Source: Paraphysoderma sedebokerense (lineage: Eukaryota; Blastocladiomycota; Physodermatomycetes; Physodermatales; Physodermataceae). From it: a stretch of DNA of 64,000 bases. Where the stretch lies: contig JAHLJZ010000072.1 of NCBI GenBank assembly GCA_025602915.1, positions 52,055 through 116,054 on the forward strand, written 5' to 3'. Positions 53,447 through 56,882 of this stretch are shown piece after piece. Both the position numbers and the translations under genes were made by a program. The notes under the pieces are model-generated. The model saw only the letters and a list, made by a program, of their open reading frames with translations. It did no database searches and was not told the origin of the DNA. Each line of letters starts with the position of its first letter. Within the stretch, counting starts at the first letter, position 1.

Positions 53447-54893
53447 TCACAACAGCAACAAATTCACAATCTCTCCTAAGACGACAAACCCCAGACTAAT
53501 CCACAAGCAGCCCATTAACCCCGTCTCCACATACATCACCCCGCTCACTATGGTTCCAACTAACCGTCCCATACTATTAGCCATATAGTAGAATCCAACA
53601 TTCACCGCCACTTTATCCCGATTCGAAAACTTTAATATCAAGTAACTATGAATTGAACTATTAACTGCAAATACAATCGCGAATAAGCCTAAGCCCATAA
53701 CAAGCGATAGGACAGTGCCAGTATATGACATAGAAGGGCTGATAAAAGTAAAGAGGAGAGAATTGAGCAAAGTAACAAGAGCAAGAATTCCAGTCCAGAA
53801 AATCAAAGGTTTTGCGGTTGTAAGAGGATACATTTTCAACGGCTGCAGAATGAATTTGGGTGTAGAAGACTGCACAATCCCGTAAATGATAACCCATACA
53901 GCGAGAAACAATCCAGTCTGGTAATAACTCCATTCCAAAACACCCCTTAAATAAACTGGCAATGCAATTTCAAACCATAAATCTCTACTACCGAACAAAA
54001 AGAACCTTGAAAGTGATAAAATTGTTACGTTTCTATCTTTCCTAAAAATCCGTTTTAATGTCAGCTTTTCTCCCGACTTGGATATTCCAAGTCCACTATC
54101 TACGAAGATCCAACTTGGAATAGCAACCACGGATGTCACACCAGTCAATATTCCCAAAGCAACATAAAACCCTGGTATCAATATGACACTGCCCAAAAAA
54201 TAACCGATCCCTTTGATAGAATTTTTAGCACCGGTTAGGTTCGCAACAAGTCTGAACAGAGGGCCACCAGAATCGGATTCCTTTGTGACTAGTTTAGTGA
54301 TACTCTTCCCACTCATTTTGACCAAGTCTTTTGCGATCCCGCTGAAACCTTGAGATATTGCGATGTATACAATAACGACGGAGCGAGACCACGAGGACGA
54401 AAGAAAGAAGAGGAAGAGGAGAGAGAAAGTTGACTAAAGAGACCGGCGAGGAGGCATGGTTTCAGACCGATTCGGGAACCTAGGATTCCTCCCAGAAGGT
54501 TTGTGAGCACTCCGAGGAGTTCGTACAGAGTAAACATGATCTATAGTGGAAAGCAGAACAAATCGTAAGTTTAATGGTTAGGTATTAGCATTAAGCAGAA
54601 AGCTCGAAACACACAGCCAATTCAAAAGCCCCAAACCCTCTTTTGAATAATTCCAGCAAGACAATCATTCTTAATGCTGAATCCGTCAAGGTAAATATCA
54701 AATAAGTCGAAGCAATGGCATAGAAATTTCGCATCGATGATGGAGGTTCGGATCCCATTCCCCTTGAGCCGTCCTCGTTATTTCCCTTCCCTTCATTTTC
54801 CATGACCACTCCTTCAGCGTCCCCTTTGCCATCCTCGATAATGCTTTGAAGTGATACAGAACTTGACTCTGATGCTATCTCTGCCGGGTGCAT
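53447..54893 (-). CDS. arsJ: ArsJ-type organoarsenical efflux transporter (MFS)
   Basis: ArsJ is a major-facilitator permease that exports 1-arseno-3-phosphoglycerate, so that arsenate taken into glycolysis is expelled. Two exons (54615-54893 and 53447-54540) are seen. Residues 1-55 are an acidic, Ser-rich extension absent from bacteria. The diagnostic ArsJ sequence follows: FTLTDSALRMIVLLELF, YELLGVLTNLLGGILGSRIG, GIAKDLVKMSGKSITKLV, LVANLTGAKNSIKGIGYFLG, FFLFGSRDLWFEIALPVY, LEWSYYQTGLFLAVWVIIYG and FYYMANSMGRLVGTIVSGVM. About twelve membrane spans fit. Between the early spans (about 54411-54432, a pyrimidine run on the coding strand) the frame changes without an intron. One missing base would restore the family pattern, so an assembly error or a mutation is likely. 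The GAPDH gene lies upstream on the same strand, as in bacterial gapdh-arsJ operons. Confidence 0.88.
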
Positions 54894-55698
54894 ATTCTAA
54901 TTCAGCTGCACATTTGTGGACTAGAGATATGTCAGGATTGATAGTTTCGCAAACCAATTCATCATTGAATCAGCTGACAACAGCTGGCGTACTAGGGACT
55001 AGGTGCCTGTCAATTTTAACTCGGCCAACCAGGGCACCGACTCTGAGCACGTGTTTTGTTGGGGAGCTTTGTGGAACTCTGGCTGTAGAAATCCAATTTT
55101 CACGTGGCTGAATATATTCACTTCAACTGCAACTCTGCAAGGCAAGTGCAATCTGGCATGGTCATTTGAGACGTGGAACAGTGGTCCTTTGTCCATGCTT
55201 TGAGTGTAAATCATACTGTCATTGAACCCATTCTTGAAGGAGAACAACACATGTCCAATGGTATCATGAGGAAAGAAATCGTTGGAGCCTCGATTGGTGT
55301 AATCTACGGCGAAATCTGTTTGCAGCCCTCATAAAAATGCCGTGACATTTTTGCTTGTGTATGGTCGATTCCATTGTTGAGAGTGATAGTCGTCTGTAGT
55401 AAGCACTAGAATAAAATCGTGCATACATAAACATAAAAAACCCGCTATTGTCGGCGTTGACGATTTTTTCACGGAACCAACCAATCCGTCAAATTACTAG
55501 TTTCTCCCCACCACCTTATCAAATATTGGCATGAAACTTTACAGCCACTGGTATGAATTTCCAAGAAGACCAAAAATATCAAGGCGCTGGTTGAAATACG
55601 CACAAAAAAGGTTGACATTTTTTGAAATTTGAAAATTCCCAGTCTGACACGTGCCCAAAGTCTTACTCATCTATTAGCTTATTACACCTATTACAACC
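54894..55698. other. Spacer between GAPDH and arsJ
   Basis: About 800 bases separate the GAPDH stop and the arsJ start. Short frames on both strands lack domains. The spacing means arsJ very likely has its own promoter here rather than sharing a transcript with GAPDH. Confidence 0.5.
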
Positions 55699-56882
55699 TT
55701 ACAATGAAGCAGCGACCCATTCTACTAATTCTAACATTCTCCAGCAGTATCCTTGCTCATTATCATACCACGCTAAAATTTTCACCATAGTCTTATCCAC
55801 AACCATCGTCGATAATGCATCAACGATACTCGATCTAGTATCACCTCTAAAGTCTTCACCGACAAGCGGACGCTCTTCAAATCCCAAAATGCCTTCTAAT
55901 TCACCTTCCGAAGCATTCTTCAGCAACTCATTTATCTTCTCTTTAGTTGTTTCGTTTTCCAGTTCAAATACAACATCAGTCAAACTAGCATTGAGAAGCG
56001 GCACTCTCACGGCTAGCCCATTGATTTTGCCCTTTAGAGACGGATAAATAGATGTAATTGCCGTAGCAGAACCTGTAGTGGTGGGAACAAGCGACAAGAG
56101 ACAGCTTCTTCCGCGACGGAGGTCTTTGTGTCCCGAATCAACGATAGTTTGTGTGTTGGTGACACTAAAATGAACAAACCAAAGGAAGTTAAAATCATAA
56201 TGAGATAATAGGAATACAATGTCTTACCAATGCATGGTGGTCATTGTGGCCCGAGTGATACCGAGTGGCAGAATGACCTTGACGATTGGAGCTAGGCAAT
56301 TGGTCGTGCAAGATGCATTTGTAACAATGTGATGTTTTGTGGGATCGTAAAGATGGTGATTAACGCCCTGATATGGCCACACAGTCGTTTAGAATAGACC
56401 AAGAATATAAAAGGATTAGAATAGATGCTAACCATAACAATGTTGAGGGCTTCGTCGAACTTGACTGGGGACGAGACAACGACTTTCTTCACTCCAAATT
56501 CGAAATATCTCTTCAAGACTTCCTTCGTCAAGTTCTTGCCTGTACATTCTACCACTATGTCAATATTTAATTGAGTCCATGCGATATCAGAGAAGTCGTC
56601 GTGACTGGAATACGATATCATGTAATCGCTGCCAACAAAAATATGGTTGGTGTTGGCATGTATTTTACCAGCCTGACTTTTCCATATTCCTTTAATAGAA
56701 TCGAATTCGAGCAAGTGAGCCGACGATGCAGCATCACACTTAATTTCGTTGATACACACGATATCGAAATGGTGAGGGTTAGTAATAGTAATAATGTCAA
56801 AATAGGCCCGAAGGAAGAGCCGGCCCATCCGCCCAAACCCATTGATGAGAACTCGAGATTTTCTGGAGGGAGCTGCCTGCAT
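55699..56882 (-). CDS. ArsJ-associated type glyceraldehyde-3-phosphate dehydrogenase
   Basis: Three exons (56433-56882, 56228-56367, 55699-56164) join in frame to about 351 residues. The NAD-binding start VLINGFGRMGRLFLRAYF and the catalytic Cys in NASCTTNCLAPIVKV are intact. Several blocks match the GAPDH found beside bacterial arsJ rather than glycolytic GAPDH: NEIKCDAASSAHLLEFDSIK, NTQTIVDSGHKDLRRGRS, PTTTGSATAITSIYPSLKGK, DTRSSIVDALSTMVV and WYDNEQGY. Ordinary GAPDH has PSSTGAAKAVGK at the third position. The enzyme can use arsenate instead of phosphate and make 1-arseno-3-phosphoglycerate, the ArsJ substrate. The start is set at the ATG at 56880-56882, giving an extension of about 10 residues. 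An upstream ATG near 57002 could add about 8 residues through another intron. It is probably not the organism's housekeeping GAPDH. Confidence 0.92.

What the first reader, a model, noticed from the sequence alone, without database searches (positions are those of the whole stretch)
53447..56882. Intron-bearing GAPDH-arsJ pair in a fungal genome: candidate transferred arsenate-resistance system
A GAPDH of the ArsJ-associated subtype (PTTTGSATAI, HKDLRR, NEIK...AAHLLEFDS-like blocks) lies upstream of an ArsJ-type MFS gene on the same strand. In bacteria this pair detoxifies arsenate: GAPDH makes 1-arseno-3-phosphoglycerate and ArsJ exports it. Here both genes carry GT-AG introns and the exporter has a eukaryote-style N-terminal extension, and they sit among fungal genes. 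That argues for horizontal transfer of a two-gene bacterial module that kept its order and acquired introns, not for contamination.
Basis: partly seen in the sequence, partly recalled or inferred. Interest (0 to 1): 0.95.

Follow-up and report, generated by a model that had tools for sequence, protein, structure and literature searches.

The report
Bacterial-type arsenate-export gene pair in fungus
A fungus that appears to have a swimming stage carries, with introns, the two-gene system that bacteria use to turn arsenate into an exportable compound; green algae are known to have it too, and here the exporter gene is duplicated, with the copy beside its partner apparently broken.

Summary
On the minus strand, an ArsJ-associated GAPDH (56882-55699, two GT-AG introns, 351 aa, 483.8 bits against the NF033735 cut-off of 450) lies 5' of an ArsJ gene (54893-53447, one 74-nt intron, about 54-aa N-terminal extension), in the order seen in 79 of 88 compared loci. 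The contig carries fungal-type genes; chitin synthases and a radial-spoke gene elsewhere suggest a flagellated, chytrid-like fungus. Grouping the GAPDH with the genome's own glycolytic GAPDH is rejected (p-AU 4.6e-05). The window's ArsJ copy changes reading frame in exon 2. A second, open ArsJ copy lies on contig C25 (408.4 bits, cut-off 400), with no GAPDH near it; the copies share a 785-bp identical tract between diverged flanks, suggesting gene conversion. No Acr3 match was found. The likely function is arsenate detoxification by 1-arseno-3-phosphoglycerate export. Donor and route are unresolved. The same pair is known, with mutant phenotypes, in green algae (PMC7826186), so this is a new fungal member of a known kind.

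The parts
55699..56882 (-). ArsJ-associated GAPDH gene: exons 56882-56433, 56367-56228, 56164-55699; predicted introns 56432-56368 (65 nt) and 56227-56165 (63 nt); 351 aa; SCTTNC catalytic block kept
   Evidence: NF033735 483.8 bits, cut-off 450; tree and AU test
53447..54893 (-). ArsJ gene, window copy: exon 1 54893-54615 (acidic, Ser-rich extension of about 54 aa, then TM1), predicted intron 54614-54541 (74 nt), exon 2 54540-53447; the reading frame changes within exon 2 at about 54390-54440, so it is not open as sequenced
   Evidence: pieces searched apart
53314..55615 (-). Block duplicated on contig C25:134804-137073 (upstream region, whole ArsJ gene and 3' flank, not the GAPDH)
   Evidence: blastn, 89.6% over 2325 columns; partition
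53520..54304 (-). 785-bp tract identical in both ArsJ copies, between diverged flanks: probable gene conversion

Best explanation
The window holds a horizontally acquired, long-resident GAPDH-ArsJ arsenate-detoxification pair in a fungus that probably has a flagellated stage. Proposed mechanism: the ArsJ-type GAPDH uses arsenate in place of phosphate on glyceraldehyde-3-phosphate and makes 1-arseno-3-phosphoglycerate; ArsJ, an MFS permease, exports it; outside the cell it breaks down and arsenate is lost from the cytosol. Shown here by sequence: subfamily membership of both proteins, conserved gene order, predicted introns, fungal context, an extra open ArsJ copy, purifying selection on the compared first transmembrane segment. 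Inferred: the enzymatic reaction, plasma-membrane location and arsenate resistance. The working exporter is most likely the open copy on C25, with the GAPDH in this window as its partner; the window's ArsJ copy is either a recent pseudogene or an assembly error.
For: NF033735 483.8 bits against cut-off 450 for the spliced GAPDH. NF033734 equivalog 408.4 against 400 for the spliced C25 ArsJ, covering model positions 1-390 of 392. Of 15 columns diagnostic for ArsJ-associated GAPDH, the window GAPDH has 14; the genome's own GAPDH has 1 of the 14 it covers. The C25 ArsJ keeps 81 of 96 columns that are at least 95% conserved in 87 rows. Tree: window GAPDH inside the ArsJ-associated clade (100/100); grouping with the own GAPDH (a 261-aa string of its exons) rejected, p-AU 4.6e-05. 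Gene order as in 79 of 88 loci, plus 1 fusion. GC3 of the two genes (0.45, 0.43) lies within the 0.375-0.486 of eight other window ORFs. Between the ArsJ copies, TM1 has 6 nucleotide and 0 amino-acid differences; exon 1 dS 0.243, dN 0.053. No Acr3 match in the genome, while the same search rang in 7 of 14 control genomes. Algal arsJ mutants are arsenate-sensitive (PMC7826186).
Against: The ArsJ copy beside the GAPDH has a frame change. The C25 ArsJ is on a very long branch (2.46 changes per column) and passes the equivalog cut-off only narrowly, so its substrate could have shifted. No expression or phenotype data; the introns are predicted from sequence. The absence of Acr3 rests on one six-frame search with a model built for bacterial and archaeal annotation, which could miss a gene split by introns.
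Confidence: 0.74

Rival explanations
1. The pair did not come straight from a bacterium: it was inherited from an older eukaryotic ancestor or taken from another eukaryote such as an alga, in which the same pair is known.
For: GAPDH-ArsJ neighbourhoods exist in green algae (PMC7826186). ArsJ of Cyanidiales red algae is reported to be monophyletic with Viridiplantae and eukaryotic lineages (PMC9812998, one passage). Holding the window GAPDH on the side of the ordinary GAPDHs, which includes a place as sister to all sampled bacterial ArsJ-associated GAPDHs, is not rejected (p-AU 0.226). ArsJ is on a long branch without a supported bacterial sister. Introns and window-like GC3 suggest long residence.
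Against: No algal or other eukaryotic homologue could be fetched, so this was not tested. The algal PGK neighbour is missing: the one PGK found is on contig C11. The best GAPDH tree puts the window next to a bacterial MAG sequence, with modest support (84/91).
Confidence: 0.4
2. The locus is a decaying relic: the ArsJ copy here is a pseudogene and the C25 copy serves alone or for another purpose.
For: Frame change in exon 2 of the window copy; an open copy on C25.
Against: The GAPDH frame is fully open with catalytic residues kept. Divergence between the copies was silent in TM1 and in the first 36 codons of exon 2. A sequencing or assembly error in a pyrimidine-rich stretch would look the same.
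Confidence: 0.25
3. Bacterial contamination or a chimeric contig.
For: The fetched relatives are bacterial or viral; the pair lies about 7 kb from the end of contig C72.
Against: Three predicted introns in the pair, window-like GC3, CWC25, Not3 and fungal-type genes on the same contig, a second intron-bearing copy on C25 near GH63 and CDC24 genes, protein identity of at most about 60% over most of the length to any fetched locus.
Confidence: 0.02
4. The GAPDH is a duplicated ordinary fungal GAPDH that happens to lie next to an MFS gene.
For: It is a GAPDH-family protein.
Against: Grouping with the own glycolytic GAPDH rejected, p-AU 4.6e-05; 14 of 15 diagnostic residues; best model NF033735; the neighbour is ArsJ.
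Confidence: 0.01

Closest known systems
Bacterial ars-operon gapdh-arsJ pair (Pseudomonas aeruginosa DK2; Chen et al. 2016, not held, known through passages of PMC6205960 and PMC9454679)
   Same: Same two subfamilies, same order and strand, same catalytic block; curated NCBIfam models passed by the spliced GAPDH and by the C25 ArsJ
   Different: Fungal host, introns, 805 bp between the genes, N-terminal extension on ArsJ, second unlinked ArsJ copy, frame change in the linked copy, no other ars gene noticed beside it
Green-algal GAPDH3-ArsJ-PGK neighbourhood (Foflonker and Blaby-Haas 2020, PMC7826186, abstract and passages)
   Same: Eukaryotic version of the same pair, with exons and introns drawn in its figure according to the legend; arsJ and pgk3 insertion mutants of Chlamydomonas are arsenate-sensitive
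   Different: No PGK neighbour here; fungal host; whether the two eukaryotic versions share one origin could not be tested
Pteris vittata PvGAPC1-PvOCT4-PvGSTF1 system (passages of PMC7826186 and PMC9454679)
   Same: Analogous arsenate handling that involves a GAPDH and a transporter
   Different: Plant GAPC and organic-cation-transporter families, described as convergent
Fungal Acr3 arsenite efflux
   Same: Arsenic export
   Different: Another family and another arsenic species; no Acr3 match found in this genome

Membership tests
ArsJ-associated GAPDH (NF033735) | Score over the curated cut-off of 450 bits and best among GAPDH models | tested here: met
   483.8 bits; next model 455.3 with its own cut-off of 563
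ArsJ-associated GAPDH (NF033735) | Phylogenetic place with ArsJ-associated rather than glycolytic GAPDHs | tested here: met
   100/100 branch; own-GAPDH grouping rejected, p-AU 4.6e-05. Whether it is nested among or sister to the bacterial ones is open (p-AU 0.226)
ArsJ-associated GAPDH (NF033735) | Adjacency to arsJ, upstream on the same strand | tested here: met
   Window order; 79 of 88 compared loci likewise
ArsJ permease (NF033734) | Equivalog cut-off of 400 bits over the full length | tested here: met
   C25 copy spliced: 408.4 bits, model 1-390 of 392. The window copy was tested in pieces only: 318.3 and 33.2 bits, each under the whole-protein cut-off
ArsJ permease (NF033734) | One continuous open frame of about 400 aa | tested here: inconclusive
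   C25 copy: 457 aa open. Window copy: frame change in exon 2; sequencing error not excluded
GAPDH-ArsJ arsenate resistance system | Arsenate-dependent formation and export of 1-arseno-3-phosphoglycerate; resistance phenotype | not testable with these tools
   Needs expression and assays
Green-algal GAPDH3-ArsJ-PGK neighbourhood | PGK gene beside the pair (in most, not all, of the algae of PMC7826186) | tested here: not met
   The PGK matches of the genome, 6 stretches, all lie on contig C11

The most novel reading that the evidence does not exclude
A flagellated fungus has given up the usual fungal Acr3 route and relies on an acquired GAPDH-ArsJ system as its dedicated arsenic exporter. The exporter was duplicated away from its enzyme partner and is kept homogeneous by gene conversion, so a bacterial two-gene module has become a dispersed eukaryotic pathway.
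Probability: 0.35. Interest if true: 0.65.

Novelty: new member of a known kind. Interest (0 to 1): 0.52.

Why it matters
Fungal arsenic handling is usually described as Acr2/Acr3 reduction and efflux plus methylation and oxidation (passages of PMC11370035); arsenate export by the GAPDH-ArsJ route is described in bacteria and algae. A fungus with this pair, and with no Acr3 found, would extend the route to fungi and give a tractable case of a bacterial two-gene pathway settling into a eukaryotic genome, with introns, duplication, dispersal and gene conversion. It also makes a testable prediction: arsenate-sensitive if either function is lost.

Tried and rejected
A paper search for a chytrid assembly of 27.3 Mb found none. 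A PDB comparison of the own GAPDH and one of a chitin synthase ORF (no match at E up to 1e-20) did not help.

Donor: trees of 90 GAPDHs and 88 ArsJs, then 43 and 35 with bootstraps, gave no supported donor. For GAPDH, window plus filamentous cyanobacteria is not rejected (p-AU 0.112). For ArsJ, window plus cyanobacteria (0.415) and plus alphaproteobacteria (0.147) are not rejected, and the best tree's window plus Verrucomicrobia has support 75/0.

A tyrosine-recombinase-like stretch at C25:131915-133004 was considered as a carrier of the second copy; two of its ORFs gave no Pfam match and the duplicated block does not include it, so a mobile-element explanation was dropped. Bacterial promoters and terminators in the pair's region: near chance (10 against a mean of 8.6, and 2 against 3.0). 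Solved structures for ArsJ: none at E up to 0.01. Structure prediction was not run, because the family models already answered the question.

Full report
What is there. The window is the last 64 kb of a 116,054-base contig (C72) of a 27.3-Mb, 195-contig assembly. On the minus strand a GAPDH gene (56882-55699) is followed 805 bp downstream by an ArsJ gene (54893-53447). The ArsJ gene has a first exon with an acidic, serine-rich extension of about 54 residues before TM1, then a 74-nt GT...AG intron, then the bulk of the transporter.

Family membership. The spliced GAPDH scores 483.8 bits on NF033735, ArsJ-associated GAPDH (cut-off 450), ahead of all other GAPDH models. Of 15 alignment columns that are at least 90% one residue in 78 ArsJ-associated GAPDHs and at most 20% in nine other GAPDHs (one very divergent row, L130, left out), the window has the ArsJ-type residue at 14; the genome's own GAPDH on contig C76 has it at 1 of the 14 it covers. 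The ArsJ pieces in the window hit NF033734 and no other NCBIfam model at E up to 0.01, with 318.3 and 33.2 bits; Pfam's MFS_1 matches the larger piece at 26.0 bits, under its cut-off of 33.4.

The reading frame of the window's ArsJ copy changes inside exon 2, in a pyrimidine-rich stretch at about 54390-54440, so this copy is either a recent pseudogene or carries a sequencing error. The same assembly has a second ArsJ copy at C25:135484-136928. Spliced at the same intron it is open for 457 aa and scores 408.4 bits, over the equivalog cut-off of 400 and across model positions 1-390 of 392. No GAPDH was seen among the ORFs of the 18.4 kb read around it, and the NF033735 search of the assembly rang only on C72 and on the ordinary GAPDH of C76.

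History of the two ArsJ copies. The duplicated block runs from window 55615 to 53314 and excludes the GAPDH. Identity is 85.8% upstream, 91.4% in exon 1, 87.8% in the intron, 96.2% in the first 235 bp of exon 2, 100% over 785 bp (54304-53520) and 81.1% in the 3' flank. An identical tract between diverged flanks is best read as gene conversion, though an assembly artefact cannot be excluded without reads. Exon 1 has dS 0.243 and dN 0.053. TM1 has six nucleotide and no amino-acid differences, while the extension has 18 and 10: the transporter part has been under purifying selection and the tail much less or not. The shared intron shows that the intron is at least as old as the duplication.

Fungal host, not contamination. 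The window carries Not3, CWC25, a mannosyltransferase (Glyco_transf_15, 82.1 bits) and a Zap1-type zinc finger (42.1 bits); that the last two are typical of fungi is recalled. Elsewhere the assembly has strong chitin synthases (best 681 bits; that gene's ORF also has the CHS4-like domain, 61.9 bits; note that the chitin-synthase search also rings in 4 of 14 prokaryotic controls) and a radial-spoke gene (150 bits; 0 of 14 controls). Together these suggest a fungus with a flagellated stage. The species was not identified. GC3 of GAPDH (0.45) and ArsJ (0.43) lies within the 0.375-0.486 of eight other window ORFs; an exon of the own GAPDH on C76 has 0.53. The C25 copy sits near GH63 and CDC24 genes.

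Comparison with bacteria. From one genome scan (best 80 of 584 confirmed candidates, itself a capped list), one viral-contig scan (2 loci) and six plasmid loci, chosen out of 66 plasmid records with a match, I took 88 loci. In 79 the best GAPDH ORF lies upstream on the same strand, in one (L036) the two are fused in one frame, and in 8 no GAPDH ORF was found in the DNA held; 5 of those 8 have under 500 bases upstream of the match, the other 3 (L045, L055, L071) have 3.5 kb. The window order is therefore the usual bacterial order. Identity is 48.9-62.8% for GAPDH, the top two values being partial ORFs, and 36.7-47.3% for ArsJ.

Trees. Two partial GAPDHs and one partial ArsJ (L109) were dropped for length. 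The careful GAPDH tree used 33 of the 78 ArsJ-associated rows, 8 of the 10 other GAPDHs (two long rows dropped), the own GAPDH (a 261-aa string of exons) and the window; the careful ArsJ tree used 34 of 87 rows and the C25 exon 2. The window GAPDH is inside the ArsJ-associated group (branch 100/100) and beside the fused L036 sequence (84/91, not strong). Grouping with the own glycolytic GAPDH is rejected (p-AU 4.6e-05). Holding the window on the side of the ordinary GAPDHs, which includes a place as sister to all sampled ArsJ-associated GAPDHs, is not rejected (p-AU 0.226), nor is a union with filamentous cyanobacteria (0.112). The ArsJ row is very long (2.46) and has no supported sister; cyanobacterial and alphaproteobacterial unions are not rejected (0.415, 0.147). 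So the families are clear, the donor is not, and the two genes cannot be shown to come from one donor.

Mechanism. By family knowledge (passages of PMC6205960, and PMC9454679) the GAPDH forms 1-arseno-3-phosphoglycerate and ArsJ exports it. The SCTTNC, HKDLRR and PTTTG blocks are present, and 81 of 96 ArsJ columns at least 95% conserved in 87 rows are kept in the C25 copy. No Acr3 match was found (0 candidates; the same search rang in 7 of 14 control genomes), which makes this the only arsenic exporter recognised so far, with the caveat that introns can hide a gene from a six-frame search and that other exporters were not sought. The one PGK found is on C11, not beside the pair.

Known or new. 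Green algae have GAPDH3-ArsJ pairs, in most analysed genomes with a PGK, and Chlamydomonas arsJ and pgk3 mutants are arsenate-sensitive (PMC7826186, abstract and passages). Red algae of the Cyanidiales have arsJ by itself (PMC9812998, one passage). A 2026 paper on mushroom Acr3 calls ArsJ a bacterial family (PMC12860867, passages). Searches of the held library gave no paper whose title, abstract start or read passages report ArsJ in a fungus; I read passages of seven papers and know the others from listings only. A survey of 16 arsenic genes in 670 genomes, 142 of them fungal, does not contain the word ArsJ (PMC11370035: listing, passages). Subscription papers and preprints were not searchable, and figures and supplements of the algal papers, which may include fungal sequences, were not seen. 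I therefore call it a new member, in a new host group as far as I could see, of a known kind.

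Noticed in passing
L036:2199-4613 (Filomicrobium MAG MED665): GAPDH and ArsJ matches lie in one uninterrupted open frame, an apparent natural fusion, and its GAPDH part is the tree sister of the window GAPDH (84/91).
   Followed up: partly
G000 C25:131915-133004 (L008 5916-7005): Overlapping ORFs with a tyrosine-recombinase-like look (GTHSFRRGG block, recalled resemblance to Crypton elements), about 2.5 kb upstream of the second ArsJ copy; two of the ORFs gave no Pfam match.
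   Followed up: partly
window 63482-63496 and 63912-63926: Two short TTAGG x3 tracts and repeated 50-bp segments in the last 600 bases of the contig, possibly subtelomeric.
   Followed up: no
window 46743-47269 and 59881-60457: Diverged direct repeat (66% over about 600 bp); the second copy just overlaps a 755-aa ORF at 60432-62696 without Pfam match.
   Followed up: no
window 48655-50208: PAS, HisKA, HATPase and response-regulator pieces of a probable hybrid histidine kinase about 3.2 kb from the pair (each under its Pfam gathering score).
   Followed up: no
L108 and L109 (IMG/VR contigs): ArsJ relatives at the very ends of two contigs classed as viral; whether a GAPDH precedes them cannot be seen.
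   Followed up: no
L033 (MAG labelled Bifidobacterium breve): Its ArsJ and GAPDH group with other actinobacterial MAG sequences, so the bin label may be wrong.
   Followed up: no
window 57552-58394: Single 280-aa ORF with a membrane-protein look by eye, divergently placed next to the GAPDH, no Pfam match.
   Followed up: no
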